A DNA stretch of 64,000 bases. Source: Sphaerolaimus hirsutus (lineage: Eukaryota > Nematoda > Chromadorea > Monhysterida > Sphaerolaimidae). Made by a program: the position numbers and the translations under genes. Where the stretch lies: NCBI GenBank assembly GCA_964036195.1, contig OZ038455.1, positions 10,929,855-10,993,854 on the forward strand, written 5' to 3'. The number at the start of each line of letters is the position of its first letter. Position 1 is the stretch's first letter. The notes beneath the pieces are model-generated. The model did no database searches and was not told where the DNA came from. It worked only from the letters and a program-made list of their open reading frames with translations. Shown here piece after piece: positions 22,086 to 61,817 of this stretch.

Positions 22086-25000
22086 AAACACAGCCCCTAG
22101 TTTGGAAACTCCTGTAAACTCAGCCCCTAATTTGGAAAATGGTATGAATATTTCAAAAAATCACTATCATCAATCCACAAATGCATCAATTCACAATTTT
22201 CAATTTTTTAGCCCCAGGGGTTAGACTTAAAAAGTTATGGTAATGTAGAGTAGAAATGGAGTGCACATCTCAAATCAGTGCAATAAAAAACCCACAAATG
22301 CATCATTTCACAAATTGAAAGTTTTTGTGCCCAGGGGTTCATTATCAGGGTTTTAGTAATGTGGTGTCAAAATGGAGTGCATATTTGAAATCGCTACAAT
22401 CAGAAACCCACAAACACATCATTTTATGATTTGAAAATTTTTGGCCCTGGGGGTTCATTTTCAGGGTTATGGTAATGTAGTGTCAAAATGAAGTGCATAT
22501 TTGAAATCAAGGCAATCAAAAAGCCACAAATGCATCATTTCACAATTTCTAATTTATTAGCCCCATGGGTTCAATTAAAGGCTTACAGTAATGTAGAGTT
22601 GAAATTGAGTCATTTCAAATCAGTGCAATTAGAAACCTGCAAAACGCATCATTTCACAATAAGAAATTTTTGGGTCTAGGGGTTCAATTTCAGGGTTTTA
22701 GTAATGTAGTGTCAAAATGGAGTGCATATTTGAAATCGCTACAATCAGAAACCCACAAATGCATCATTTTATGATTTGAAAGTTTTTGGCTTAGGGGGTT
22801 CATTTTTATGGTTATGGTAATGTAGTGTGAAAATGAAGTGCATATTTCAAATGAGTGAAATCAGAAACCTGAAAATTTATGATTTCACAAATTGAAAGTT
22901 TTTGGCTCCAGAGGTTCATTTTCAGGGTTATGGTTATGTAGTTTTCAGGGTTTTGTAGTGTCAAAATGGATTGCATATTTCAAATCAGTGCAATTAGAAA
23001 CCCACATCAAATCATTTCACAATTTCTAATTTTTTAAGCCCTGGGCATATTTGAAATTGCTACACTCAGAAACCCACAAATCCATCATTTTATGGTTTGA
23101 AAGTTTTTGGCCCAGTGGGTTCATTTTTAGGGTTATGGTAATGTAGTGTCAAAATGAAGTGCATATTTCAAATGAGTGCTTTCAGAAACCCGAAAATGCA
23201 TCATTCCTCAAATTGAAAGTATTTGGCCCCATGGGTTCATTTTTAGGGTTATGGTAATGTAGTGTCAAAATGGAGTGCATATATCAAATTGGTGCAATCA
23301 GAGACCCAAATTTGAAATCAGTGCAATCAGAAACCCAAAAATGAATGATTTCACAAATTGAAAGTTTTTGGCTCCAGAGCTTCATTTTCAGGGTTATGGT
23401 TATGTAGTTTTCAGGGTTATGTAGTGTCAAAACAGAGTGCATATTTCAAATCAGTGCAATTAGAAACCCACATTGAATCATTTCACAATTTCTAATTTTT
23501 TAAGCCCTGGGCATATTTGAAATCGCTACACTCAGAAACCCACAAATCCATCATTTTATGGTTTGAAAGTTTTTGGCCCAGGGGGTTCATTTTAGGGTTA
23601 TGGTAATGTAGTGTCAAAATGAAGTGCATATTTCAAATGAGTGCTATCAGAAACCCAAAAATGCATCATTTCTCAAATTGAAAGTATTTGGCCCCATGGG
23701 TTCATTTTGAGGGTTATGGTAATGTAGTGTCAAAATGGAGTGCATATATCAAATTGGTGCAATCAGAGACCCAAATTTGAAATCAGTGCAATCAGAAACC
23801 CAAAAATGAATGATTTCACAAATTGAAAGTTTTTGGCTCCAGAGGTTCATTTTCAGGGTTATGGTTATGTAGTTTTCAGGGTTATGTAGTGTCAAAACAG
23901 AGTGCATATTTCAAATCAGTGCAATTAGAAACCCACATTGAATCATTTCACAATTTCTAATTTTTTAAGCCCTGGGCATATTTGAAATCGCTACACTCAG
24001 AAACCCACAAATCCATCATTTTATGGTTTGAAAGTTTTTGGCCCAGGGGGTTCATTTTAGGGTTATGGTTATGTAGTGTCAAAATGAAGTGCATATTTCA
24101 AATGAGTGCAATCAGAAACCCGAAAATGCATCATTTCTCAAATTGAAAGTATTTAACCCCATGGGTCCATTTTGAGGGTTATGGTAATGTAGTGTCAAAA
24201 TGGAGTGCATGTATCAAATCAGTGCAATCAGAAACCCAAATTTGAAATCAGTGCAATCAGAAACCCAAAAATGCATCATTTCACAAATTGAAAGTTTTTG
24301 GCCCCAGTGGTTCATTTTCAGGGTTATGGTAATGTAGTGTCAAAATGAAGTGCATATTTCAAATGAGTGCAATCAGAAACCCAAAAATGCATCATTTCTC
24401 AAATTGAAAGTATTTGGCCCCATGGGTTCATTAACGGGTTATGGTAATGTAGTGTCAATGGAGTGCATATATCAAATCAGTGCAATCAGAAACCTAAATT
24501 TGAAATCAGTGCAATCAGAAACCCAAAATTGCATCATTTCACAAATTGAAAGTTTTTGGCCCCAGTGGTTCATTTTCAGGGTTATGGTAATGTAGTGTCA
24601 AAATGGAGTGCATATATCAAATTGGTGCAATCAGAGACCCAAATTTGAAATCAGTGCAATCAGAAACCCAAAAATGAATGATTTCACAAATTGAAAGTTT
24701 TTGGCTCCAGAGGTTCATTTTCAGGGTTATGGTTATGTAGTTTTCAGGGTTATGTAGTGTCAAAACAGAGTGCATATTTCAAATCAGTGCAATTAGAAAC
24801 CCACATTGAATCATTTCACAATTTCTAATTTTTTAAGCCCTGGGCATATTTGAAATCGCTACACTCAGAAACCCACAAATCCATCATTTTATGGTTTGAA
24901 AGTTTTTGGCCCAGGGGGTTCATTTTAGGGTTATGGTTATGTAGTGTCAAAATGAAGTGCATATTTCAAATGAGTGCAATCAGAAACCCGAAAATGCATC

Positions 25001-27760
25001 ATTTCTCAAATTGAAAGTATTTAACCCCATGGGTCCATTTTGAGGGTTATGGTAATGTAGTGTCAAAATGGAGTGCATGTATCAAATCAGTGCAATCAGA
25101 AACCCAAATTTGAAATCAGTGCAATCAGAAACCCAAAAATGCATCATTTCACAAATTGAAAGTTTTTGGCCCCAGTGGTTCATTTTCAGGGTTATGGTAA
25201 TGTAGTGTCAAAATGAAGTGCATATTTCAAATGAGTGCAATCAGAAACCCAAAAATGCATCATTTCTCAAATTGAAAGTATTTGGCCCCATGGGTTCATT
25301 AACGGGTTATGGTAATGTAGTGTCAATGGAGTGCATATATCAAATCAGTGCAATCAGAAACCTAAATTTGAAATCAGTGCAATCAGAAACCCAAAATTGC
25401 ATCATTTCACAAATTGAAAGTTTTTGGCCCCAGTGGTTCATTTTCAGGGTTATGGTAATGTAGTGTCAAAATGGAGTGCATATATCAAATTGGTGCAATC
25501 AGAGACCCAAATTTGAAATCAGTGCAATCAGAAACCCAAAAATGAATGATTTCACAAATTGAAAGTTTTTGGCTCCAGAGGTTCATTTTCAGGGTTATGG
25601 TTATGTAGTTTTCAGGGTTATGTAGTGTCAAAACAGAGTGCATATTTCAAATCAGTGCAATTAGAAACCCACATTGAATCATTTCACAATTTCTAATTTT
25701 TTAAGCCCTGGGCATATTTGAAATCGCTACACTCAGAAACCCACAAATCCATCATTTTATGGTTTGAAAGTTTTTGGCCCAGGGGGTTCATTTTAGGGTT
25801 ATGGTTATGTAGTGTCAAAATGAAGTGCATATTTCAAATGAGTGCAATCAGAAACCCGAAAATGCATCATTTCTCAAATTGAAAGTATTTAACCCCATGG
25901 GTCCATTTTGAGGGTTATGGTAATGTAGTGTCAAAATGGAGTGCATGTATCAAATCAGTGCAATCAGAAACCCAAATTTAAAATCAGTGCAATCAGAAAC
26001 CCAAAAATGCATCATTTCACAAATTGAAAGTTTTTGGCCCCAGTGGTTCATTTTCAGGGTTATGGTAATGTAGTGTCAAAATGAAGTGCATATTTCAAAT
26101 GAGTGCAATCAGAAACCCAAAAATGCATCATTTCTCAAATTGAAAGTATTTGGCCCCATGGGTTCATTAACGGGTTATGGTAATGTAGTGTCAATGGAGT
26201 GCATATATCAAATCAGTGCAATCAGAAACCTAAATTTGAAATCAGTGCAATCAGAAACCCAAAATTGCATCATTTCACAAATTGAAAGTTTTTGGCCCCA
26301 GTGGTTCATTTTCAGGGTTATGGTAATGTAGTGTCAAAATGGAGTGCATATATCAAATTGGTGCAATCAGAGACCCAAATTTGAAATCAGTGCAATCAGA
26401 AACCCAAAAATGAATGATTTCACAAATTGAAAGTTTTTGGCTCCAGAGGTTCATTTTCAGGGTTATGGTTATGTAGTTTTCAGGGTTATGTAGTGTCAAA
26501 ACAGAGTGCATATTTCAAATCAGTGCAATTAGAAACCCACATTGAATCATTTCACAATTTCTAATTTTTTAAGCCCTGGGCATATTTGAAATCGCTACAC
26601 TCAGAAACCCACAAATCCATCATTTTATGGTTTGAAAGTTTTTGGCCCAGGGGGTTCATTTTAGGGTTATGGTTATGTAGTGTCAAAATGAAGTGCATAT
26701 TTCAAATGAGTGAAATCAGAAACCTGAAAATTTATGATTTCACAAATTGAAAGTTTTTGGCTCCAGAGGTTCATTTTCAGGGTTATGGTTATGTAGTTTT
26801 CAGGGTTATGTAGTGTCAAAACAGAGTGCATATTTCAAATCAGTGCAATTAGAAACCCACATTGAATCATTTCACAATTTCTAATTTTTTAAGCCCTGGG
26901 CATATTTGAAATTGCTACACTCAGAAACCCACAAATCCATCATTTTATGGTTTGAAAGTTTTTGGCCCAGGGGGTTCATTTTAGGGTTATGGTTATGTAG
27001 TGTCAAAATGAAGTGCATATTTCAAATGAGTGCAATCAGAAACCCGAAAATGCATCATTTCTCAAATTGAAAGTATTTAACCCCATGGGTCCATTTTGAG
27101 GGTTATGGTAATGTAGTGTCAAAATGGAGTGCATGTATCAAATCAGTGCAATCAGAAACCCAAATTTGAAATCAGTGCAATCAGAAACCCAAAAATGCAT
27201 CATTTCACAAATTGAAAGTTTTTGGCCCCAGTGGTTCATTTTCAGGGTTATGGTAATGTAGTGTCAAAATGAAGTGCATATTTCAAATGAGTGCAATCAG
27301 AAACCCAAAAATGCATCATTTCTCAAATTGAAAGTATTTGGCCCCATGGGTTCATTAACGGGTTATGGTAATGTAGTGTCAATGGAGTGCATATATCAAA
27401 TCAGTGCAATCAGAAACCTAAATTTGAAATCAGTGCAATCAGAAACCCAAAATTGCATCATTTCACAAATTGAAAGTTTTTGGCCCCAGTGGTTCATTTT
27501 CAGGGTTATGGTAATGTAGTGTCAAAATGGAGTGCATTATATATCAAATCAGTGCAATTAGAAACCCACAATGCATCATTTCACAATTTGAAAGTTTTGG
27601 CCCCATTTTGGGTTCAATTTCAGGGTTATTGTAATGTACTGTCAGAATGGAGTGCATATTTCAAATCATTGTAATCAGTAACCCACAAATGCATTATATC
27701 ACAATTTATATTTTTTAGCCCCGGGGGCCTCACTTAAGGATTATGGTAATGTTATTGTTA
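22086..27760. repeat. Satellite array with 868-bp higher-order repeat
   Basis: 5.7 kb of tandem, 100-125 bp units built from AATGTAGTGTCAAAATGGAG, TCAAATCAGTGCAATCAGAA, ATGCATCATTTCACAAATTG and GTTCATTTTCAGGGTTATGG. In the middle the units form a higher-order repeat: near-identical blocks start at 24350, 25218 and 26086 (exactly 868 bp apart), and a further copy lies 1188 bp on at 27274. Edge units are more diverged, as expected for a satellite homogenised from the centre. The 81-aa open frames repeated every 868 bp are incidental. Confidence 0.93.
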
Positions 27761-47569: not shown

Positions 47570-49100
47570 TCATTACGGGCGATGTAATGATAAGATTAAC
47601 TGAGTTTTCTGGGCACACAGATTTCTTAGTGATTAGTAAGGATAGGAGTTCAGTAGTGAACTGAAGTTATAAGCGATAAAGTATGCTTACACCTTTCAGA
47701 AGCCATTAGAATTTTTCTGGCAAAATGAAATGTCTACGTCTAATGAAATGTTAGATTTTGAAGATGGTGCCCACGTCACGAATCTGTGCGTCTAGAACTT
47801 TTACGCCGTGTGACATAACAGTGCTATAATTATCACTGCAGGCGGAAAGAGTAAAATTGGGCGTCGCACATTTTTTACATAAAAATGAATAGGTGGTGAA
47901 ATATTGTAAAAGCGCCCTTTTTGCTGAATACACTGGATTCAATTTCGCATTTGTTCAGGTGACAAGAAAGCTGCAATGAATTTTTGGTTGGCACTTGGCA
48001 TGCAGTTTGTAAATTTGTACTTGATTATTGACTCGATAATTGTACTGATATTTGTTATACTCCAGTCACTTTACACCCTGCACGCTTGGTTCCCGCTGGA
48101 AGCGTGCCAACTATTTTGTTACGCATGCGACTTTGATAAAGTTCAAAGAAGTTATCTCTGTTATAACGCTATACGTTTACTTATTCACAGCAGTGATTTT
48201 CCATCTTTTATACAAAAATCGCATGGTTTATCATCATTGGCAATCTTCCAACGTGAGACATAAATGAGTGCGAGGGCAGAGTATCATGTCTGCCGAGTAT
48301 ACTGATACTGTAAATTTCTACTTGATTCGGAATTCCCGCCAGGTGCCACTCACAGACATTGTAAAACGTCAAATATCACGCTAAGTGTCAAAAGTCATGG
48401 AAAATGCTCTGTAAAATGTCAAATCTCACGCTGAGTGTCAAAAGTCACGTGAGATTAACTGTAAAATTTAAAATGACTATTAAAAAAGAAAATTTGACAT
48501 TTTACCGGGCATTATGGGTTTCAGGTGTCAGTTTTTTCATACTGTCTTGTCTTTTACTTCTGAAGCCCTTGTTTGAATTAATCGATTTCCATCCTGTGAT
48601 TTTCACATTTTTTCTTTCTTTTTGTGGTCGTTTTGTTTGAACATTTGTAATAGTATTTCAATTTCACCGAGGTGCGAAACGTAGTGCCTATTCGATGCAC
48701 TAGTAAAACAAATAAATGCTGTATTTCCTCGAAATAGTCCCAGGTGTTTTTTTCCCGTCAAAAAACGTTTTTGCCATCACTTATCATCAAAATTTGCATC
48801 TAGGACTTTGAATAATTTTTTTGCTGAAGCGGTTCATCCCTTTATGCATCGTAAATATAATATGTATTTATCGTCCTTGATAACCGCAGAAAGGTCGCGC
48901 CGGGATTTACGTCTCAAATTTCAATGTCGGCATAAAAATTCGAAAGTTTTTTTAAATTAGAACAGTAAATAGGACTTAATAGATGTCTTGTTGCATAACA
49001 GTGTTCTTCACATTAAACGTATTTACATAGTAACCCAAAAAGTGACGTTTTTTATTTTTGATATGACTCAACCATTCAGCAAATATTGTGCTCAGCTAAT
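47570..49100. other. Convergent intergenic region
   Basis: Lies between the 3' ends of the zinc transporter (+) and monooxygenase (-) genes. Holds a family M palindrome at 48340-48530 (GGTGCCACTCACAGACAT, then GTCAAATATCACGC words) and one family H end at 48719 (GTATTTCCTCGAAATAG). Several short open frames lack support. Confidence 0.4.
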
Positions 49101-49105
49101 TTATT
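49100..49105 (-). terminator. Poly(A) signal of the MOXD1-like gene
   Basis: AATAAA on the minus strand, overlapping the proposed TAA stop codon (49101-49103) of the last exon. Confidence 0.45.
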
Positions 49106-52100
49106 CACAATCATCACAACGACGTTGATAAATTTCTGAATAATGTCTGAGTGTCCCGTCGAAGTCGCTGAATTCGTCGCGCAGCTATCAGTTACAGAAT
49201 ATTCCTTCTTGATATCCACTTTTGTCGACGTTTTACCAAACTGCAAATTTGATCATTTTGAGAAATGTTTTTCGAAAATTTTGAAGAAATTTTTTTTGCT
49301 ACTCTAACCCAGGGACCTCCGAAAGTGCAATACATGTAGCCATCTTTCCCTGCCTTCCACAGGTTCTGAAATTCATCTATTTTCTGTCCTTTCTGCCAAT
49401 CAACATTTTTATCGATGTAATCTTTCAGCGGTGTGAGCTTTTTCGTGTCCGGATTTTTGACAGCGCCACTGTCATGGGAATTTTTTCATGAAATATTCCA
49501 TGACTGCAATGAATTTCGAGTTGTTTCACTACTGTTTTTATGAGTAAAATTTAATTAAATTTTCAGTCAAATTTCCTTGAAATTTGACTGTTGTGTTAAA
49601 ATGCTGCTCTGCAGCATGCCCCCTCCCCCAGTGACACAGGCTTCTATGGCATGACAGTGCAGGAAAATCATCCAGTTGGCAACTCAATGACAGACACACT
49701 CTGGGCAAGCTGCAGGCACCAATTAAGACTTCAACATTTCAGTGATTAAATTTGTAACTTCTGGACATTTTGAACACTATGGATAACATTATGGACACTT
49801 TCACACATGCAAATTGAAATTCATGTATTCTTTTTGGTATTTACACATTGATTTGTTTGATCTCACTGTAAACATGTTTTCTCACTTGTAATTCACTATT
49901 CCATTCTTAGGTACAGTAGAATTTATTCTGTCATGCAAAGTAACTACTTGAGTGCAAATTCTTTACTGTTTTCATGTCCACATAATCTAGGCAACCCACT
50001 GTTTTACCAAATGACCACTTTTCCTTGATGTTTAAGTGTCTCTTTACTGGTTTTAGAAATTCCCACTGCACACATGCATTATCTTCTCAGCAGGTAACTT
50101 TCAGATACATTTTCACAAACACCTTTCCTTGTTGTATTTGACTTAATTATGAGTATTTTACCCAAGCCACTCTTAATCTTAATCACCCACTGTGCATAAG
50201 TATTTTCCCCTTTGAAACTGTTCTTAACCAACATTCACATGTGCAAATCATGGAAGTACCCATGCAGATTGCAATGCACTCAGCATGTGATTTTCTCAAG
50301 GATTTTCCTGCAGGTGCATAGTAATTAGTAATCCACTATTGTTTCATGCACTATTTAAGTGAGAGCTGAACAAAATTTTAGGGCAGTAGAGGACTGATCA
50401 GTATAATTTTTTTTTTTTCTCTCCACCAGTTTTTTTTTCTCTATGTTTTTGTTTTGTGTTTTTTCTCATGCATTTTTTATGAATTTAATCAAGCAGTCAT
50501 AAACAGTGTATAGTAACAGTCAGCATCATGTAGGACAATTTGACACACTGAAAATATGTAGGATTTTCTGAAATTGTATTGACTATGTATTCTCTATTGA
50601 TTTGTAATTTTTAAAATCACATTTGAGCATTGGCAGGACATTTTGCAGGATTTTCTAATTATTTATGTTGATTGGAGTATTTTGTTTCAGAAATTGTGAA
50701 AGTTTCTCTTTCTCTCTTCTTTTTTTTCAATAAAAACATCACAAAAACAAGAGGTTGTAGTTTTTGTGCACTTGGAAATGGAAACAGCAGAACAAACTTG
50801 AGTGGAAAAGTTAGGTATTCAACAGTGAAATGAGTTGTAAAATTTGGTTATTTGCAGTTGCAGGTATAGGTTTTGTATTTGATTGCAGTTGATTGCTGGA
50901 GGCTTATGGATGGATCATACCCGTAGAAGCAGTGCAGTGCAGACATCAGAAAAAACATAGGTATAGCTGGGATACATTTAGAATATTGTGTATAGGTGTT
51001 TTTTTTTGTACATTGTTGTTGTGTCAGATTTCTACACTCTCAGTGACTGACATCAAAAGTGGATACCAACCCATTCACTCAAACTTTCTCACAGATCTCT
51101 ATCATCATCCACTGTCTATCACTCAGAGGTTATACACAACATCATTGCAGTTTTTTTTTGTATTTAGGAAAATGTCATCCCAACATACATAGGTGTGAGC
51201 TATTCAAAAGTTGGCATGTGGCCAAAGGTGCAGTTTTTTTTTGTTCAGATGGTAATTAGTTTGGTGGCAGATTGCAGCATAGAAAGTTGGCTTAGTGCCA
51301 GAGAAACTGAAAGGTTTAGTGTGAACTGTGAATGTGAATAACAATTGGTTTGGTAAGGCATGCAAGTGAAATTGGAAACAGTGGTTGTATGGGGCAGGTA
51401 TGGCAAGTTGCCAGTGTATTGTTGAAAGCAGGGGCTGGTTTGGGCTGTTAGCTTATGTTGCTACAGCTGATTGGCATATGTTGCCATAGCAAGTAGAGCA
51501 TATGTTGCTCTGGTGGTTTAGCATATGTTGCTACCACAGTTCTATCAGGTTGACAGGGTAGTACTGAGCAAGAGAGCCCCCCCAGACATTCTTTGGACAG
51601 CTGCCAATGGTATTTGTGTGTGAAAAGAAATGTGTGAACAGAAATGTGTGTCAACAATTGTGTCAAAAATGTGTGCTGTAGTGCAGAAATTTTTGAATTT
51701 TTTTGCCCCCTTAGTGTTAGTGTTATTGAATTCAGTGTGTGAGTGTCCAATTTCAATACCCTCTGCATTGTATGTAGGTATGAAATTTTACATGTGTGTT
51801 GCATTTGCATTTGTGTGAGCATGTGTTAATGTGTTATTTTCACTTGCATGACTGTGTGTTCCAAAATGTGTGCATTTATTGTGTGTCATTGCTATTATGT
51901 GACCTACATCATTTAGTGAATAATAAGTTTGATTTTTTTCTCTCTTTTGGTGTACCTGTGCTGTGTGTGGTGTCGTGTGGTTTGACACCCCACACCTGTG
52001 TAGTGTCAGGGGGTTTGACACTACATTCAGGTGACTCTGTACAAGCTATTTCATGAATTGCATAGTGTGTAAACAGTTGGTATGGCGGTCCCCCTTAAAA

Positions 52101-55100
52101 CAAACTGTGTGTATTTGGTGTCTCAACACTGTTATGGGCCCCAGTGTTTGAGTGCACCTAAATTGTGTGTATTTTTGCTTCGCTCCCTTATTGCTGCTTT
52201 GTGTGTGTTTATTAATTGTGTGAGCCTATTGTTTTTCAAGACCCCCATACTGACATGGGTGTGTGCATATTTAATTATTCATAAACTGTGCACCAAAACC
52301 CCAAATCAAAATGACAAAATGGTAGCAGCGAGTGGTTTGATAACTCTTTGCCAGTTTATTGTGTGTGTAAATTCTATTGTGTGTCAGTGTGTATATAATC
52401 CAGTGTGAGCAATTATATTGAATTGGCAAAATAACTTCAATAAAGATCACCTTAGTAGGCTCCAACATGCTGTGTAATTCATGTGTGTTTTTGTGTGAAA
52501 TCATGAGTTGAGTGTGTGAAACTATTTCTTTATTTCACTGTTTGTTGACAAATGTTTGCACCAGCCACACAGGTACACCCAAGTCAACTGCATCAAAGCA
52601 CTACAGGATCAACTGCAAAGGAAGAGGATTGGACAACAGGATTCCAGAAACAAAAGAGGAACAGTACAACAGGACCAGGAAAGGACAATCCAAATAGGAT
52701 CAGAAGGAAACTACCAGGAATTTTAAAAGCTGAGTTATCTTTCTATTTTGTAATTTTTTGCTGAGAGTTTGTTTCGTGGTGTCAAGTGCAGAGAAAACCA
52801 TGGCACAGGGTGGTAGCAACATCAACCAACCCATGGCATTTACTGGGATGCCATCAGTTTTGATTGCCATGAATGGTATCATTGAAAAGTTCACTGATGA
52901 GTGCAAAGAACCTTTTGAAGATTGGCATCAACTTTTTGAAGAAACCGCCAGTGCTCTGGGAATTGATAGTGTGCAATGCCTCCACATTTTGCCAACATTT
53001 TTGAGAGGCACTGCTTTGGATACTTTTAGACTGAAAATGGTAACTGAGCCTGACGTTTCTTATGGTGATGTGTGCAAATTTCTGAAACAGAAGCTGTCAA
53101 ATGCATTGCAGGAGCAGAAAAACAGATTAGCTTTTATGGAAACTGTGCAATTTGAAAATGAGTCTGTTCACAACTTTTCCTTGAGATTGCAAAAACTAGG
53201 TTTAAAGGCATTTCCAAATATGAGCTGTAGTGATTTGTACAAAACTTTTGATTTGGCCAGTCATTTTGTATCAAAATTGAAACCAGAATTGAGGTATCAT
53301 GTGCACTTGATGGGTAAACCAAAAACTTTCCAGGAGGCAGAAGAATCTGCAATTTATGCTGAACATTTAGTGGAAGACAATCAAACTTCAAACAAATTTG
53401 ATGAAAAAACTGATTTTTACAAGCAGTGTTGTGCAAAACAAAAACAGTGTGAAAGTAAAGTGTCTAATTTCCCCAAAAACCCTGGTAGGTTGAGCAGTGC
53501 CAGCTCTAAGACAAGAAGTGTAAAAAGTCAAAGGTGTTATGGGTGCAGAAAAAGTGGGCATCAGGCCAAAAATTGTCCAAAAAAGTCAAACAAACCAAGT
53601 GACTGACTCTTGTTTTGGTACAACAATTTCTCAGTTTTAAAAACCAAACCAAATGTGGATTAATTTTGTGTTCTTTTTCTGAAAAATGGATATTCACTTT
53701 GTTGATGTGAAAATTCATCAATACATAACTTTTTAGAAATGGTGCAAAATTTTTGTTTCATTTTTAGCATTTTTTATGTTTTTTTTCACTTTGAAACATT
53801 TTATCCTGTGTTGTGACTTTTTTTTTCTTCAGTGACTGCAATTTACAACCTGGGAGGTGTCCAGCTGAAAATTGCATGCAAATGTAAACAGTACCTCTAA
53901 AAAATTATTTTTTTTTCACAACTAAAAATTTCATTTTTTTTAGTTCAATTTTTTTTAAACCCTGCCAGACAATTGTTAAACCCAACTGTCACAATGTAAA
54001 CTTGCAATGATATTGTTGTTGTTTTTAAATATAAAAAAGAAGTATTTTTACAGCCCTAGGCTGAAAAATACAGCCTGGGAGGCACATTCAACATATTTTT
54101 CTTACTGTGGTGATTTTTGTGTGGTTAATGATTCAAAGATGAATAACTTTTGGTGCAGTAATTTTTACTCACAATTTATTGGTGTGGAGACTTTGTGGTA
54201 GACTTGTTGCAGTAGGTAAATCACATCTTAATTGAAATAATAACTTTTCCCACCCACTTTACAGGCTTCGATTTGGTCACCATTGCAGTTTTTTTTCTTT
54301 TTTTCACCCAACAAACAATAACAAAATATTTCACTCCCAAAAATACCAACAAAAAAATTTCATCAAAATTCATTGCCAACTCCAACTTGGCATCTGAGGA
54401 CAGATGCATTACAGCCTGGGAGACTGTCATGGGAATTTTTTCATGAAATATTCCATGACTGCAATGAATTTCGAGTTGTTTCACTACTGTTTTTATGAGT
54501 AAAATTTAATTAAATTTTCAGTCAAATTTCCTTGAAATTTGACTGTTGTGTAAAAAGGCTGCTCTGCAGCATGCCCCCTCCCCCAGTGACACAGGCTTCT
54601 ATGGCATGACAGTGCAGGAAAATCATCCAGTTGGCAACTCAATGACAGACACACTCTGGGCAAGCTGCAGGCACCAATTAAGACTTCAACATTTCAGTGA
54701 TTAAATTTGTAACTTCTGGACATTTTGAACACTATGGATAACATTATGGACACTTTCACACATGCAAATTGAAATTCATGTATTCTTTTTGGTATTTACA
54801 CATTGATTTGTTTGATCTCACTGTAAACATGTTTTCTCACTTGTAATTCACTATTCCATTCTTAGGTACAGTAGAATTTATTCTGTCATGCAAAGTAACT
54901 ACTTGAGTGCAAATTCTTTACTGTTTTCATGTCCACATAATCTAGGCAACCCACTGTTTTACCAAATGACCACTTTTCCTTGATGTTTAAGTGTCTCTTT
55001 ACTGGTTTTAGAAATTCCCACTGCACACATGCATTATCTTCTCAGCAGGTAACTTTCAGATACATTTTCACAAACACCTTTCCTTGTTGTATTTGACTTA

Positions 55101-58100
55101 ATTATGAGTATTTTACCCAAGCCACTCTTAATCTTAATCACCCACTGTGCATAAGTATTTTCCCCTTTGAAACTGTTCTTAACCAACATTCACATGTGCA
55201 AATCATGGAAGTACCCATGCAGATTGCAATGCACTCAGCATGTGATTTTCTCAAGGATTTTCCTGCAGGTGCATAGTAATTAGTAATCCACTATTGTTTC
55301 ATGCACTATTTAAGTGAGAGCTGAACAAAATTTTAGGGCAGTAGAGGACTGATCAGTATAAATTTTTTTTTTTCTCTCCACCAGTTTTTTTTTCTCTATG
55401 TTTTTGTTTTGTGTTTTTTCTCATGCATTTTTTATGAATTTAATCAAGCAGTCATAAACAGTGTATAGTAACAGTCAGCATCATGTAGGACAATTTGACA
55501 CACTGAAAATATGTAGGATTTTCTGAAATTGTATTGACTATGTATTCTCTATTGATTTGTAATTTTTAAAATCACATTTGAGCATTGGCAGGACATTTTG
55601 CAGGATTTTCTAATTATTTATGTTGATTGGAGTATTTTGTTTCAGAAATTGTGAAAGTTTCTCTTTCTCTCTTCTTTTTTTTCAATAAAAACATCACAAA
55701 AACAAGAGGTTGTAGTTTTTGTGCACTTGGAAATGGAAACAGCAGAACAAACTTGAGTGGAAAAGTTAGGTATTCAACAGTGAAATGAGTTGTAAAATTT
55801 GGTTATTTGCAGTTGCAGGTATAGGTTTTGTATTTGATTGCAGTTGATTGCTGGAGGCTTATGGATGGATCATACCCGTAGAAGCAGTGCAGTGCAGACA
55901 TCAGAAAAAACATAGGTATAGCTGGGATACATTTAGAATATTGTGTATAGGTGTTTTTTTTTGTACATTGTTGTTGTGTCAGATTTCTACACTCTCAGTG
56001 ACTGACATCAAAAGTGGATACCAACCCATTCACTCAAACTTTCTCACAGATCTCTATCATCATCCACTGTCTATCACTCAGAGGTTATACACAACATCAT
56101 TGCAGTTTTTTTTTGTATTTAGGAAAATGTCATCCCAACATACATAGGTGTGAGCTATTCAAAAGTTGGCATGTGGCCAAAGGTGCAGTTTTTTTTTGTT
56201 CAGATGGTAATTAGTTTGGTGGCAGATTGCAGCATAGAAAGTTGGCTTAGTGCCAGAGAAACTGAAAGGTTTAGTGTGAACTGTGAATGTGAATAACAAT
56301 TGGTTTGGTAAGGCATGCAAGTGAAATTGGAAACAGTGGTTGTATGGGGCAGGTATGGCAAGTTGCCAGTGTATTGTTGAAAGCAGGGGCTGGTTTGGGC
56401 TGTTAGCTTATGTTGCTACAGCTGATTGGCATATGTTGCCATAGCAAGTAGAGCATATGTTGCTCTGGTGGTTTAGCATATGTTGCTACCACAGTTCTAT
56501 CAGGTTGACAGGGTAGTACTGAGCAAGAGAGCCCCCCCAGACATTCTTTGGACAGCTGCCAATGGTATTTGTGTGTGAAAAGAAATGTGTGAACAGAAAT
56601 GTGTGTCAACAATTGTGTCAAAAATGTGTGCTGTAGTGCAGAAATTTTTGAATTTTTTTGCCCCCTTAGTGTTAGTGTTATTGAATTCAGTGTGTGAGTG
56701 TCCAATTTCAATACCCTCTGCATTGTATGTAGGTATGAAATTTTACATGTGTGTTGCATTTGCATTTGTGTGAGCATGTGTTAATGTGTTATTTTCACTT
56801 GCATGACTGTGTGTTCCAAAATGTGTGCATTTATTGTGTGTCATTGCTATTATGTGACCTACATCATTTAGTGAATAATAAGTTTGATTTTTTTCTCTCT
56901 TTTGGTGTACCTGTGCTGTGTGTGGTGTCGTGTGGTCCTGACACTACACAGGTGTGGGGTGTCACCACCATATCTTTGCTTGATAATCTGCATATGAGAA
57001 ATTCGTGCGCTGTAAATTTTTGGCGGGAATCTGGGGGCACTCCCGCACCCTGTAAAGTACCAAATGTCATGTAAAACTCGTTACCGAGTTTTGATAATTT
57101 GCATGACATTTTACGTGACACTTAACACTTTACAGGGTGCGGGACTGCCACCTGTGCCAATCCGAGACCGTGTAAAGTATAAGGTGAAGCGTCAAATTCA
57201 GGTGAAATGTCAAACAAACAAAAAATATATAAGATTTTATTAGTGAACTTTGTATGTCAATTGACACGTTTGCATGTCAATTGACAATTGACACGATTTA
57301 CGTCTGTCGTGACACGTGAAGCCGAAATCTGAGTTGACACATAGACCAATGACGCAAATGTGTGTTAACTAGTGTGCGGGCAGTTACATACATTCTTTTT
57401 TGGAATGTCCATAAAGTCGGTCAAAAACGCCTCGTCTCTTGGCCCATTCACACAAACGAAGCCGGAGCTATTGTCAATTTTTGGATAAGTCAGCAAGAAC
57501 GCGAGGCACATTTCATCCCGCGTACTTGGGCCACCCTGTATGGTACAAACTTTTTATAGACACTTTTGTGATGTTAAGAAAAAACAAACAATTTTTGAGA
57601 CTGACAAATGTTGTCTTTTCTCTGTCGGATGTGTCGTACACGCACTCCAGGATGAACTCATCACCCTGTAAGCGGAAAATAATTGGCGTTGCATATCATT
57701 TTGATTATACATATTTACAAAAGAGGCATCCCTTGTGTAACTCCCTCTGCCAGTTGTGTTGGAAAAAATACACCCCTAAATAGGTAAAACCTATATCTGT
57801 TGGTGGGACAATTGCAGTCAAGGACGTAGCCACCCCCCCCCGATCGCCGGGCTCCGTATACAATACGCCCCCCCCCCCCCGCTCAAAAATCCTGCCTACG
57901 TCTCTGATTGCAGTATACAAAAGAATGCATTGCATCTACTCTTATTATGCCTAAATTGATGGATTTTCAAGGGCAGTAATTTTACTTGAATTTGTGTGTA
58001 ATGATGAAAAAATCGCATTTCGTAAATTTCGCTTTGTTCTGTTCCCTTCTTAAATTTGACATGTAGTTCAATAGCTACACATGTATTTAGCTAACAAAAA

Positions 58101-61100
58101 ATCACTGACTGGTAAAACCTTGACAGGTTCATTAAGCAAATTCATTTGTTGGTAGTTGAAGTCATAGTGGCGATCATCGAATATTGGCTTCAGCTCTGTC
58201 CCATTTCGCACGTGTCTCATTTTGACTCTTTTTCCAGCCAAATGAGTGTGAACAAAACCGGCCAAAAAGTGATGGCCCTCATCTCTCAAATTGTTGGTGC
58301 ACGGCGCCGTGCAGTATGAGTATACTGTAAATTCCTGTGTTTTGAAGCGATTTTTACTTGATTTTTGACAAATGCAGAGTGGTATTATACTCATCTCATT
58401 CTCGCGTTATTTATTTTTACATAAAATTTTTGCAGTGCATGGCCAGTAATTTTGAGTGACCAATTATTATTTTGTTGAAAGTCGTAGGGGCACAATAAAT
58501 CGCACCAGATACTAGTGAACGTCGCTTACTGCAAACTTAGTGCCAATACCAGACTGAAAAATGTCAAATGCCATGTAAAATCATTTTCCTGGGCATTTTA
58601 CATGATATTTGACATTTCACAGGGTTTGTTACTGCACCTTCGCAATTTCGAGAGAAACATCTTTTATTTTACACAAAACCTTTTGTTTCGGTGGAACAAT
58701 GATATCCCAAGCCTGTATACCAGGTCCAAAAAGGCCCATTTGTGCAGAGAGTTTCTGATGTTCGGTTGTCGTGTAAAACTGCAGCCCAGACGAGTCAACA
58801 ATGTCTGCGTGTTTCATCGTGAATAGGATCGGGGCGATATGACTGTTCGATATTGGTAACCGATATATCGGTATGGACCTTCGTTATTGATATTCGATAT
58901 GAAATAATGGTCGATATGGTGCCAGTTCCGCAAAATGAGAAGTGAGAAGTGAAATGGAAAAGGCGAAATAAAAGCGCAAAGGCGAAGTGAAACGGCAAGT
59001 GAATTGGCAAAAGCGAAGAAAGATTAGGTACTTTTTATTTTTTACTTCGCTTATGCCAATTAGCATTGAAAAAATCTCTGGGAGATTTATATTTTAAAAA
59101 TCTCAGAAAATATAAGAGTTTCTGAGATTTATATTTTTCACACGATTTTCTAGAGAGATTTAATTATATTTTCTTTTTGAGAGATTTTCTGAGATTTTTA
59201 AAAATATCAGAAAATCTCTCAAATTCTGATATTTATATTTATTTATATTTTTTCCAGCTTTTTTGAGAGAGATTTAATTATGTATTTTTTCTTGAGAGAT
59301 TTCTGAGATTATATTTAATTATATTTTCCAAAAATTGATGATTTTTTCAATGCTAATGCCAATTCACTTGCCGTTTCACTTCGCCTATGCGCTTTTACTT
59401 CGCCTTTGCCATTTCACTTCTCATTTTGCGGAACTGGCCTATGGTCCGATTTTCAATATCGATATTAGATATGAAAAAATTGTTGATACTCGGTATTCTA
59501 CATCACATGTAGTGTGTCTATTAAATTGACTCTACCTTTCTTGTTTTTTGGGTTGTCATAATGCATTTCCAACATGTAGTAGCTGGATCGTCCAAAAATT
59601 GGTTGTCCAATGTCTTTGGGAAATACGAACGCCTGCACTTATATCGATTTGTGTAGGAAAATCCAAATTTTAGAATAATCATTTAAAATGAAATGAAAAA
59701 CAGTAAATACCTCCCCTCCATAAGCCCAAGCAGCTGCTACCTCGGAGCAGTAATTCATGGGGTTTATCGCATTCTTTTTAACACCAGGGGACACTCCCAA
59801 ACGCTGTAAAATGCGCTGTAAAATGTCAAATGTCATGCAAAGTGTCAAAAGTCATATAAAACGCCATGTAAAATGGCAAACGTTGGCCATTTTCCAGGGC
59901 ATTTTACATGACTCTTGACACTTTACATGACATTTCACATTTTACAGTTACAGCGTTTGGGAGTGGCACTTGGGTCATTCTGAATCCCGAGACTGAAGCA
60001 TGGACCTTCCCAATTACTTGAATTATCAAAGTCCATGGAAACCAAATTGTCATTGCACCCATATAAAACCATGTGGTGCACGAATGGCCGATTTTCTACC
60101 GGATCTAGCACAATGTCGTACTGTAATAAATAAAAACGAATATTAACGTATATGCGGCGGACATCACACTTAGTATAAAAACCTACCATAACCCATCTGA
60201 ATAATGAACCAAAACTTTTACATTTTTTCATCATAATATTTAGTTTTTACTATGAAATAATAAATTGCGAAATTTATCAAAAAAATTTATTCATAACATT
60301 ATGGTAGGTTTTCATACTAGGTGTGCTGTCCGCCGAGTATACGTATACTGGACGGACAGAGCGCTACACAATGAACGCTACCATATTTTGATGAATAAAG
60401 TTACGTGAAGAGTTGTGAAACGAATGTGATCTGATGAGAAACTTTTTTGTTTGTTCGTTTATTCATATGGGATAAGGTAGATTTTATTGTAAGGTGTACC
60501 GTCAGTAGGGTTTATTATAAATTACCGTATTTCCTCGAAATACCCCCCCTCGTTTGACCCCCCCCCCCCTCTCGAGACAACTATGAAACAATCACCCCCC
60601 CTCGAAATACCCCCCCCCCCCCAAATTGAGTGTAAAGGGAACGTACATGACAATAACTGTAGTTTGTGTTCTGTGTACTGCAGAACACACGTTGAAACAA
60701 TGTCGGTGTCACGTTAGAACAGTGTACATACCATCTACATACTAATATTAGTCTACAGAACCTTATAAATGGCGGTTTTTGTTGCATTTTTCGACGTCTG
60801 CGTACGTTTCAGACGACAATTTCGTACTTGGTTTTCAAAAATTTTCTTGTGAAATAATAACCCCCCCCCCTCGAAATACCCCCCCTCGTTTAACCCCCCC
60901 CCCTCTTGGGACCACTATGAAACAATCACCCCCCGGGGGGTATTTCGAGGAAATACGGTAGATGGTTTTTTACCGCTATAATGCTAGTTTCTGGACGTTC
61001 AAAGTGGAAGAGTTTACACCAATATATGGTGTCATATTGCGAGGGCACTGCGACATTTTCCATCTTGATGTCGATCACTTCAATTTGGCTGCCATCCAAT

Positions 61101-61817
61101 TTTGATAGACGCTCTTTTAGTTCATTTTTTGTTTGTTTATAGAATAGATTTATCGATCTGATCCCACGATTTGAATGTTTTGCTATTGGACCTGAGATGT
61201 TCACTTTCCGTTGTTTAAGTTTTTTAAAAATTTGCTGCACTTTACCTGTGTCACTTTCTGGAATTTCATCTCCAATAGACCAAATTGCTTTCACAGTGTC
61301 GCCTTCGTGTAAGTCGAAATCTTGTGTATCACAAGTTTTCTTTTTCCTGGAAACGTCTGCCCAAATGTGTGTCGCATTTTTGCCTGATTTTAGTAGGTCC
61401 CAATTTTGGTTATCGTCCTTTGGTGGATAGCCATTTTTGGTTCCATGGCGATCGGAAATTTGGCCTACACCCTGTGAGAATCGATTTGACGTCGTATTGA
61501 GTTGAGATTTCAAACATTGCCAGCCCCCTCAAATCACCCAAAATATTGTTGAAAAATTTTTTTAAAGTATTTTATCCCCAGCTTGCAAAGTAGCTAGTAC
61601 GGTAGGTAGTTCCTCCAAAAACTGACATTTTTCTCAATCCACACAATAACCATATCAGCGCCAGCCATCCCACCATTTGGACTGAAGCCAAATCCCACAT
61701 ATCCAGTAGCCTTGGCAGTCAGGGAAAATGTGACTTCATTTTCACTTGTGACCCATTTCAATTGGAAATTGTTCTCCCAATCCAACCACAGTGAGTGAGT
61801 GTATTCTGATTCTGTCA
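49101..61817 (-). CDS. MOXD1: MOXD1-like copper monooxygenase, exon split by retrotransposon
   Basis: Eleven exons on the minus strand: 61627-61817, 60974-61471, 59970-60120, 59711-59793, 59536-59632, 58680-58804, 58110-58334, 57606-57665, 57392-57535, [56965-56987 + 49309-49465], 49101-49184. About 611 codons. The family hydroxylates substrates using two coppers, as dopamine beta-hydroxylase does in the secretory pathway; the substrate of MOXD1 is not established. In order: DOMON domain (TGYVGFGFSPNGGMAGADMV, WDLLKSGKNATHIW), first copper domain (VHHMVLYGC, LEMHYDNP), second copper domain (DSSGLQFY, FVHTHLAGKRV, GDEFILECVYDTSDR, STRDEMCLAF). All expected ligands (HH, H, HTH, M) are present. 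The first exon here starts in phase 1, so a signal-peptide exon lies upstream. The penultimate exon is cut by a 7.5-kb LTR element, so this allele should encode a protein truncated after the catalytic core. The exon 3/4 junction and last exon are the least certain. Confidence 0.85.
49309..49469 (-). pseudogene. Downstream half of the interrupted MOXD1-like exon
   Basis: Encodes a stretch containing KKLTPLKDYIDKNVDWQKGQ and GKDGYMYCTFGGPW, which corresponds to the post-catalytic C-terminal segment of MOXD1. It begins with the CCAC target duplication (49466-49469) at the retrotransposon end. The other half (56965-56987) encodes IIKQRYGG after a CAG acceptor. Together, counting the duplication once, they make 180 nt, phase 0 on both sides. 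Reading from the upstream half into the LTR adds about 30 foreign residues and stops at 56868. Confidence 0.85.
49470..52009 (+). repeat. 5' LTR of the gag-only retrotransposon
   Basis: About 2.54 kb, almost identical to 54425-56964. It begins TGTCATGGGAATTTT. Differences noticed are a few bases near 49597-49606 (GTTAAAATGCTG against GTAAAAAGGCTG), one at the poly-T near 50405, and the final 28 bp. The AATAAA at 50729 could be its polyadenylation signal. The GTGTGT-rich second half gives incidental open frames on both strands. Such a long LTR with near identity implies recent insertion. Confidence 0.9.
50729..50734 (+). terminator. LTR poly(A) signal
   Basis: AATAAA in TTCAATAAAAACATC of the 5' LTR; identical copy at 55684-55689 in the 3' LTR. 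Confidence 0.4.
52320..52332 (+). promoter_or_regulatory. Candidate primer-binding site
   Basis: TGGTAGCAGCGAG begins with TGG, the complement of the universal tRNA 3' CCA, and resembles primer-binding sites of animal LTR elements. Its distance from the apparent LTR end (52009) is abnormal; see the finding on LTR ends. Confidence 0.35.
52800..53606 (+). CDS. Retrotransposon Gag with CCHC zinc knuckle
   Basis: 268-aa ORF. The ATG at 52800 (ACCATGG) is chosen over an upstream non-ATG extension. The middle resembles a retrotransposon Gag capsid region: FEDWHQLFEETASALG, HILPTFLRGTALDTFRL, FLKQKLSNALQEQ, VHNFSLRLQKLGLKAFPN, LKPELRYHV. The C-terminus has a canonical CX2CX4HX4C knuckle (C246, C249, H254, C259; CYGCRKSGHQAKNCP) for nucleic-acid binding, followed by a short basic end. 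The protein would package element RNA. The reading frame is intact, consistent with recent activity. No pol frame follows; a stop comes 10 residues after the knuckle. Confidence 0.9.
   Translation: MAQGGSNINQPMAFTGMPSVLIAMNGIIEKFTDECKEPFEDWHQLFEETASALGIDSVQCLHILPTFLRGTALDTFRLKMVTEPDVSYGDVCKFLKQKLSNALQEQKNRLAFMETVQFENESVHNFSLRLQKLGLKAFPNMSCSDLYKTFDLASHFVSKLKPELRYHVHLMGKPKTFQEAEESAIYAEHLVEDNQTSNKFDEKTDFYKQCCAKQKQCESKVSNFPKNPGRLSSASSKTRSVKSQRCYGCRKSGHQAKNCPKKSNKPSD
53607..54424. other. Noncoding 3' internal region of the retrotransposon
   Basis: T-rich sequence with TACAGCCTGGGAG words (near 53846, 54070, 54412). Contains no frame resembling pol. It may hold packaging or primer signals for trans-mobilisation. 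Confidence 0.6.
54425..56964 (+). repeat. 3' LTR of the gag-only retrotransposon
   Basis: 2540 bp, TGTCATGGG to GGGTGTCA, directly followed by CCAC and the rest of the MOXD1-like exon. Offset to the 5' LTR is 4955 bp throughout. The last 28 bp (56937-56964) are the exact reverse complement of 51983-52010 in the 5' copy. Confidence 0.92.
57033..57165. mobile_element. Family M foldback element
   Basis: Ends GGGGGCACTCCCGCACCCTG and CAGGGTGCGGGACTGCC. Both arms share the private variant GCACCCTG instead of the usual GACCCTG. In the intron before the split MOXD1-like exon. Confidence 0.75.
58541..58640. mobile_element. Family M foldback element (100 bp)
   Basis: AGTGCCAATACCAGACTG to CACAGGGTTTGTTACTGCACC with ATGTCAAATGCCATGTAAAAT arms, in the MOXD1-like intron following exon 6. 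One terminus (minus strand GTGCAGTAAC) could act as an alternative donor. Confidence 0.7.
58826..59500. repeat. GATAT-rich inverted element split by a family L element
   Basis: 58845-58917 and 59444-59500 contain CGATATTGGTAACCGATATATCG, TGATATTCGATATGAAA and ATCGATATTAGATATGAAA words, similar to 9855-9975. The family L element at 58918-59443 interrupts it. In the MOXD1-like intron between exons 5 and 6. Confidence 0.5.
58918..59443. mobile_element. Family L foldback element
   Basis: From GTGCCAGTTCCGCAAAATGA to CTCATTTTGCGGAACTGGC. Subterminal arms are AAGTGAAATGG / CCATTTCACTT words; the core is AGAGATTTTCTGAGATTTTT-type repeats. Flanks both contain TATGGT, a possible 6-bp duplication with one extra base. 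Confidence 0.75.
59785..59969. mobile_element. Family M foldback element forming a MOXD1-like intron
   Basis: Ends GGGGACACTCCCAAACGCTG and CAGCGTTTGGGAGTGGCAC, both carrying the private AAACGCTG variant. On the minus strand the element itself begins GTGCCACTCCC (donor) and its far arm supplies TTTGGGAG|TG (acceptor). Confidence 0.7.
60125..60345. mobile_element. Foldback element, CCTACCATAA arms
   Basis: Inverted arms AAAACCTACCATAA / TTATGGTAGGTTTT around AT-rich sequence, flanked by GCGGCGGACA and TGTCCGCCGAG. A diverged copy is at 32836-33060. In MOXD1-like intron 2. Confidence 0.65.
60523..60961. mobile_element. Family H foldback element (long)
   Basis: Outer ends TACCGTATTTCCTCGAAAT and ATTTCGAGGAAATACGGTA; C-runs with CTCGAAATACCCCCC words near both ends. 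An internal copy of TCGAAATACCCCCC-CTCGTTT words at 60872 suggests two elements or an internal duplication. It ends 12 bp from MOXD1-like exon 2. Confidence 0.75.

What the first reader, a model, noticed from the sequence alone, without database searches (positions are those of the whole stretch)
49309..56987. Recent LTR retrotransposon splits a coding exon of a MOXD1-like gene
The sequence shows a CCAC duplication at 49466-49469 and 56965-56968 on either side of a TG...CA element. Removing the element and one CCAC joins 56965-56987 to 49309-49465. This gives an exon of exactly 180 nt, phase 0 at both ends, with a CAG acceptor and a GT donor, encoding the C-terminal region expected for MOXD1. 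All copper ligands lie upstream of the break. Read-through into the LTR adds about 30 residues and stops at 56868. So this allele probably makes a truncated but catalytically complete enzyme, or none.
Basis: partly seen in the sequence, partly recalled or inferred. Interest (0 to 1): 0.85.

Follow-up and report, generated by a model that had tools for sequence, protein, structure and literature searches.

The report
Retroelement with copied-primer end splits exon
A young jumping element has landed inside a coding exon of a copper-enzyme gene in an unidentified animal, and the unusual end of that element suggests its family primes DNA copying with a snippet from the start of its own RNA and then builds that snippet into the host genome.

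Summary
A 7,495-bp element (49470-56964) flanked by CCAC splits an exon that rejoins to 180 nt, phase 0/0. A paralogue has an unbroken homologous exon of the same 180 nt. The gene has DOMON and both copper-monooxygenase domains, with the copper ligands before the break. Read-through adds 31 residues and stops at 56868; in-frame skipping of the split exon is also possible. Effect and allele frequency are untested.

The element is unusual. It carries gag only. Its 3' LTR lacks the last 335 bp and ends in a 28-nt cap, the inverse of LTR-internal 51983-52010. Subfamily versions of this cap end other insertions: of 24 read with both ends, 20 have an exact 4-5 bp duplication, and about a dozen are 31-64 bp inverted 'dimers' of the cap with differing junctions. 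Best reading: the 5' end of the element's RNA primes cDNA and is integrated, akin to Tf1 self-priming though its PBS test fails. Main rival: terminal repeats of a DNA transposon.

The parts
49470..56964 (+). whole inserted element, 7,495 bp, antisense to the gene
   Evidence: CCAC duplication, TG...CA ends, repeat pair
49466..49469 (.). target-site duplication, left copy (CCAC)
56965..56968 (.). target-site duplication, right copy (CCAC)
49470..52316 (+). 5' LTR, complete, TGTCA...TGACA, 2,847 bp
   Evidence: second copy on C3 (L021) carries a ~2.85-kb repeat up to the PBS; ends read
51983..52010 (+). LTR-internal 28-nt stem-loop sequence after GGTT; putative start of the element's RNA (R start, inferred)
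   Evidence: exact inverse of 56937-56964; same place in relatives
52320..52339 (+). tRNA-type primer binding site TGGTAGCAGCGAGTGGTTTG, 3 nt after the LTR
   Evidence: 17 of its nt occur at 131 places in the genome, 0 in the reversed control
52800..53606 (+). gag ORF, 268 aa from first ATG (PNMA-like capsid, CCHC knuckle); no pol matched in this copy
   Evidence: ORF, limits; Pfam PNMA 1.3e-6; zf-CCHC 0.0027, which is under its curated cut-off
54415..54424 (+). short purine-rich stretch before the 3' LTR (PPT-like)
   Evidence: read
54425..56936 (+). 3' LTR, homologous to the first ~2,512 bp of the 5' LTR; last 335 bp of the LTR absent
56937..56964 (+). 28-nt cap CCTGACACTACACAGGTGTGGGGTGTCA, inverse of 51983-52010
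   Evidence: same cap at other insertions
56965..56987 (-). 5' part of the split exon (IIKQRYGG)
49309..49469 (-). 3' part of the split exon; 180 nt in all when one CCAC is dropped
57392..57535 (-). preceding exon with the Met copper ligand (GGPSTRDEMC...); phase 0 at its 3' end
   Evidence: splice sites read by eye; alignments
49076..49240 (-). proposed last exon FGKTSTKVDIKK...NIC-stop, after a 68-nt intron
   Evidence: in frame with AG acceptor; no homology support
57392..61815 (-). upstream exons of the gene: DOMON, Cu2_monooxygen, Cu2_monoox_C (approximate range; 5' end of gene not mapped)
56830..56835 (-). AATAAA in gene sense, 33 nt after the read-through stop at 56868
   Evidence: AATAAA occurs about every 681 nt on this strand of the window

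Best explanation
Shown: a gag-only LTR element integrated into a coding exon of a DOMON/copper-monooxygenase gene with a 4-bp duplication and split it. Shown: its right end is not the LTR end but a 28-nt copy, in inverse orientation, of an LTR-internal stem-loop sequence, and subfamily-specific versions of this sequence cap many other insertions. Inferred: that sequence is the 5' end of the element's RNA. A short 5' RNA fragment (about 11-36 nt, for example left by RNase H) anneals loosely to templates, primes minus-strand and sometimes plus-strand cDNA, and is itself copied, so the cDNA gains a TG...CA end that integrase accepts. Two such primers extended on each other give the 31-64 bp inverted insertions. 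In the gene, transcripts most likely end in the LTR and give a protein truncated after IIKQRYGG plus 31 residues, or are lost; this last step is inferred and untested.
For: Exon. Gene domains and ligands. LTR, PBS and second copy. The cap start sits at one fixed place, after GGTT, in the LTRs read of two diverged subfamilies, and in the three elements whose own LTR1 and right end were both read the cap matches that element's own LTR (window and C3: TGACACCCCACACC; C388: TGACGCCTCAC). Their capped 3' LTRs stop at three different points while the LTR pairs are nearly identical (window 3 substitutions, C3 0 substitutions and 1 gap; C388 1442 of 1442), so truncation and cap came with retroposition. 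20 of 24 insertions read with both ends have an exact duplication. Dimers differ in arm lengths and junctions; for L080, L081 and L099 the two arms account for the whole insert. L046 joins arms of two subfamilies.
Against: No RNA data: the RNA start is inferred, and by eye there is no TATA box upstream. No notable complementarity between cap and PBS region (longest run 5 and 6 nt, reached by 601 and 185 of 1000 shuffles), so Tf1-type annealing at the PBS is not supported and priming would have to be promiscuous. L056 (154 bp) has caps round 104 bp that gave only a weak 40-bp match (E 0.002) to one capped insertion, as a MITE might. L079 has one end at an LTR-internal TGACA, which the model does not explain. 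C14 (L049) has an 8-bp repeat and an odd left end. L092 has no duplication. Only three full elements had their 3' ends read, so I do not know how often relatives end normally. Enzyme source unknown: no reverse transcriptase was matched in the parts of relatives' frames that I searched.
Confidence: 0.62

Rival explanations
1. The caps are terminal inverted repeats of a DNA transposon/MITE family with 4-bp duplications; an ancient copy lies in the LTR, and its transposase moves anything bounded by such ends, including LTR elements.
For: Caps at both ends of short insertions with 4-bp duplications; L056 looks like a MITE of 154 bp; GGTT stands on both sides of the LTR stem-loop in the window, C3, C388 and C9:9.2 elements, as a duplication would, though not in the C6 and C7 ones.
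Against: The dimers read do not share an internal junction, as copies of one MITE would; LTR-bearing insertions read in full have the cap at the right end only and LTR pairs nearly identical, which DNA transposition does not produce; in three of three cases the cap follows the element's own LTR; one clear mixed-subfamily insert (L046). A transposase was not searched for.
Confidence: 0.22
2. An ordinary LTR insertion whose 3' LTR later suffered a local deletion and inversion at the stem-loop.
For: The cap is an inverted copy of an imperfect palindrome next to the break.
Against: The same cap ends other insertions directly at exact duplications; a chance later rearrangement would not stop at the duplication.
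Confidence: 0.03
3. Effect on the gene: the split exon is skipped, joining the Met-ligand exon (57392) to the last exon (49240) in frame, so a protein lacking 60 residues but keeping its tail is made.
For: The exon is 180 nt and phase 0/0; the flanking exons end and start in phase 0.
Against: A poly(A) signal and stop lie early in the antisense LTR; no RNA data; the last exon is a prediction without homology.
Confidence: 0.2

Closest known systems
Tf1/Tj1-type self-primed LTR retrotransposons (fission yeasts; Tf1/sushi group)
   Same: A 5' segment of the element's own mRNA serves as primer (PMC4600332, passages read).
   Different: There the PBS is complementary to the RNA 5' end. Here the PBS is tRNA-type and shows no such complementarity, the sites of priming vary, and the primer copy stays in the integrated DNA.
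Hepadnavirus plus-strand priming by the 5' RNA oligomer left by RNase H (recalled; one search gave listings only)
   Same: A short 5'-terminal RNA oligomer primes DNA synthesis after moving to another site.
   Different: Plus strand only, at a defined repeat, and no integrase step (recalled).
Non-autonomous gag-bearing LTR elements (TR-GAG/LARD type, names recalled) and TRIMs (PMC6934838, listing and start of abstract only)
   Same: LTRs and PBS without pol; TR-GAGs keep gag (recalled).
   Different: Two unequal LTRs, the second capped by a copied stem-loop.
Dopamine beta-hydroxylase / MOXD1 / PHM copper monooxygenases
   Same: DOMON and both Cu2 domains; ligands HH, H, HTH, M aligned (residue roles recalled).
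   Different: The coding exon is split here; subfamily not settled.
MITEs and other TIR elements
   Same: Short inverted-end insertions with constant-length duplications.
   Different: Copies read have differing junctions and the ends belong to an LTR element.

Membership tests
LTR retrotransposon | pair of long direct repeats with TG...CA | tested here: met
LTR retrotransposon | PBS next to 5' LTR and purine-rich tract before 3' LTR | tested here: met
LTR retrotransposon | constant-length target-site duplication | tested here: met
   4 bp in the three full elements read
LTR retrotransposon | both LTRs share the same 3' end | tested here: not met
   3' LTR lacks the last 335 bp and ends in the cap; so filed as a variant whose integrated ends are aberrant
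autonomous LTR retrotransposon | own reverse transcriptase and integrase | tested here: not met
   inside the element the only + strand frame over 111 aa is gag (stop to stop, minimum 100 aa); its Pfam matches are gag-type; the rest of the interior was not scanned for decayed pol
Ty3/Gypsy clade | reverse-transcriptase phylogeny | not testable with these tools
   no pol in this copy; none matched in the relatives' pieces searched
Tf1-type self-priming | RNA 5' end complementary to PBS | tested here: not met
   longest complementary runs 5 and 6 nt in the two elements tried, no better than shuffles
Tf1-type self-priming | RNA 5' segment acts as cDNA primer | not testable with these tools
   inferred from integrated DNA only
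MITE/TIR DNA transposon | copies share one internal structure | tested here: not met
   sequence and junction differ among the dimers read; 44 of 78 search rows unread
MITE/TIR DNA transposon | related transposase gene | not tested
DBH/MOXD1 copper monooxygenase | DOMON + Cu2_monooxygen + Cu2_monoox_C | tested here: met
   Pfam 7.6e-25, 2e-29, 3.6e-33
MOXD1 as opposed to DBH | orthology by tree | not tested
   best solved relative is DBH 4zel, 1.7e-54; no animal protein set at hand

The most novel reading that the evidence does not exclude
A lineage of animal LTR elements uses the first 11-36 nt of its own RNA as a promiscuous primer for both cDNA strands, keeps the primer copy as a working integration end, and even integrates bare primer dimers of 31-64 bp, so that its host genome holds dozens of fossil primers, one of which now ends an element that breaks a coding exon.
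Probability: 0.55. Interest if true: 0.8.

Novelty: new variant of a known kind. Interest (0 to 1): 0.6.

Why it matters
The split exon alone is an ordinary, if clean, young gene-disrupting insertion. The cap matters more: if it is a copied RNA 5' end, integrated DNA records which molecule primed reverse transcription, how long it was and where it annealed, event by event. That makes primer choice and RNase H cleavage of an uncultured lineage readable from an assembly, and shows integrase accepting substrates as short as about 31 bp. It would also mean that some tiny 'MITE-like' inverted insertions in animal genomes are retroelement by-products rather than DNA transposons.

Tried and rejected
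Rejected: a later rearrangement of the 3' LTR (the same cap occurs at other insertions). Rejected: a cap made by PBS-paired Tf1 priming. Not found: an empty or allelic second copy of the site in this assembly (the site itself only; the site and the paralogue only). No homology support for the last exon. Exon peptide alone: no Pfam family and no solved structure better than E=1.2. Reverse-transcriptase survey scored 150 of 3823 candidates and names no partner. Paper searches showed no paper on integrated RNA-5' primers in their listings (8 of 110 listed, 12 of 17, 6 of 29); I read passages of PMC4600332, PMC5006619, PMC3601003 and PMC10290214 only. Structure prediction was not used. Of 78 rows were read as sequence (26 of 36 and 8 of 42): all 23 exact rows, and close inverted pairs picked on purpose, so dimers are enriched in what I read. 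In some searches short inserts were found by asking for a repeated flank of 4 bp, so their duplications are not wholly independent of the search; for most of them the outer ends are also recognisable by sequence.
Full report
The exon. Joining 49309-49469 to 56969-56987 on the minus strand gives 180 nt without a stop, encoding IIKQRYGGAVKNPDTKKLTPLKDYIDKNVDWQKGQKIDEFQNLWKAGKDGYMYCTFGGPW, after an AG and before a GT. By itself this peptide matched no Pfam family and no solved structure better than E=1.2. The strongest test is a paralogue in the same genome: a protein search with the peptide, up to E=10, found only the window half and one other place, C3:16757421-16757591, at 32% identity and E=3.1e-5. 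There the exon runs from 16757415 to 16757594, also exactly 180 nt, and the alignment has no gap across the insertion point (one gap lies near the far end). So the two halves were one exon.

The gene. The exon translations that I joined by hand match DOMON, Cu2_monooxygen and Cu2_monoox_C, and the best solved relatives are dopamine beta-hydroxylase 4zel (1.7e-54) and PHM; those alignments end before the split exon. The PHM copper ligands (residue roles recalled) align with VHHM, MHY, HTH and DEMC, all upstream of the break. Splice sites were read by eye, the 5' end was not mapped, and MOXD1 against DBH was not tested. A proposed last exon at 49240-49076 follows a 68-nt intron in frame, but homology does not back it.

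Likely effect. Read-through gives IIKQRYGG plus 31 residues and stops at 56870-56868; AATAAA lies at 56835-56830 in gene sense, where one is expected about every 681 nt. This fits a truncated message, but it is inference. No other copy of the exon half turned up in the assembly besides the paralogue, so nothing is known about an empty allele.

The element. It encodes gag only (PNMA-like capsid; a CCHC knuckle just under its cut-off; frames). LTR1 and LTR2 differ by 3 substitutions over about 2,512 bp, apart from a cluster at the end. With an assumed 2-5e-9 substitutions per site per year this is roughly 0.1-0.3 million years; the rate is recalled and not measured here. The cluster is an inversion: LTR2 ends in CCTGACACTACACAGGTGTGGGGTGTCA, the exact inverse of 51983-52010 in LTR1. 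A second full copy on C3, 94% identical, shows that the real LTR is about 2.85 kb and ends next to the PBS, so the window's LTR2 lacks its last 335 bp.

The cap recurs. In C3 the LTR2 runs to the PBS edge and then ends GGTGTGGGGTGTCA before ATTT, which also precedes its LTR1. An 18-nt cap pattern gave 11 exact hits at 9 loci. With up to 2 mismatches that call found 36 places against 40 for the reversed control, so its near-matches carry no weight; the exact hits do, as 18 specified bases should occur about 0.01 times by chance. Insertions ending in the cap include a 5,461-bp one (GTAG), a 302-bp one (CTCC), a 334-bp one (CTTG), a 64-bp one (GTTG) and a 33-bp one (GTGA). A relative on C388 has LTR2 identical to LTR1 for 1442 of 1442 bp, then GTGAGGCGTCA and the duplication CAAG; that 11-nt end is the inverse of the start of its own LTR stem-loop TGACGCCTCAC. 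Its U5 region, and that of a sister copy on C10, was found only once per copy, as expected if their 3' LTRs lack it; the C10 right end was not read.

Census. Two patterns for the second subfamily gave 36 and 42 rows with 0 in the reversed controls. I read 34 of these 78 rows. In 4 of the 23 exact rows the sequence sits inside an LTR after GGTT (C7:4021440, C9:9217282, C10, C388); of the other 19, 15 belong to insertions with both ends read and 4 were seen at one end only. Over both subfamilies I had 24 insertions with both ends: 20 have an exact duplication, 19 of 4 bp and one of 5 bp (window, C3, C13:7.2, C9:13.2, C15, C7:12.9, C13:5.1, C388, L053, L079, L080, L081, L087, L088, L089, L090, L091, L093, L094, L099). 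The four others are L092 (none), L056 and L096 (3 of 4 bases) and C14/L049 (8-bp repeat, odd left end). L053 has one changed terminal base, the right end of L079 is not a cap, and the right arm of L094 is only 6 nt. Five more had one end only (L048, L095, L097, L098, L100).

Why primers. About a dozen of these are two inverted copies of the stem-loop start and little or nothing else: L080 (24+30), L081 (30+21) and L099 (32+21, one mismatch) are fully accounted for by the two arms, and L088 reads as 32+29. Arm lengths and junctions vary from copy to copy (L080 and L087 are alike in length but come from different subfamilies), which a MITE amplified from one source would not show. L046 joins an arm of one subfamily to an arm of the other; L091 may do the same, but its difference is one base of a C run. 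L079 and L100 have the cap just before an LTR start with AC between them, the last two bases of the purine tract in the window and C388 elements, as if the fragment had primed the plus strand there. I take the fixed start after GGTT as the RNA 5' end. That is an inference; no RNA was seen.

Against it. The PBS is a tRNA-type site, TGGTAGCAGCGAGTGGTTTG; 17 of its bases occur at 131 places with 0 in the reversed control, so ordinary priming probably exists in the wider family. The putative RNA start shows no notable complementarity to the PBS region, unlike Tf1 or Tj1 (PMC4600332, passages). L056 is 154 bp with 104 bp between its caps, of which 40 bp match one capped insertion weakly, and L079 ends inside the LTR. 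GGTT on both sides of the stem-loop in four LTR types could be an old duplication. Only three full elements had their right ends read. No enzyme source was identified: the parts of relatives' frames that I searched gave gag, zinc knuckle and, in C388, a rhabdovirus-glycoprotein-like match, but no reverse transcriptase (the frames were not covered in full). A DNA-transposon origin of the caps stays open at about one chance in five.

Verdict. The gene effect is unproven. The more interesting result is the capped end, a variant of LTR retrotransposition that resembles self-priming but fails its PBS test.

Noticed in passing
L031:2260-3609 (C388): The gag-bearing open frame of a relative (1496 aa) contains a stretch matching Rhabdo_glycop_FD (E 0.00017, just over its cut-off) after the zinc knuckle; described only.
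   Followed up: no
57033-57152: Inverted repeat of 44-nt arms, 84% complementary, in the intron next to the split exon (MITE-like).
   Followed up: no
genome-wide: 135 scored gag relatives (of 523 candidates), many with an open frame of 1470 aa; the five loci L035-L039 read have the same PBS and a U5 ending TGACA two nt before its T or G.
   Followed up: partly
L049 (C14:18444790): A bare 28-nt cap between 8-bp direct repeats GCACTCAA.
   Followed up: partly
window 23791-26439: A chance peptide match repeats at 868-bp spacing (23791, 24659, 25527, 26395), suggesting a tandem array.
   Followed up: no
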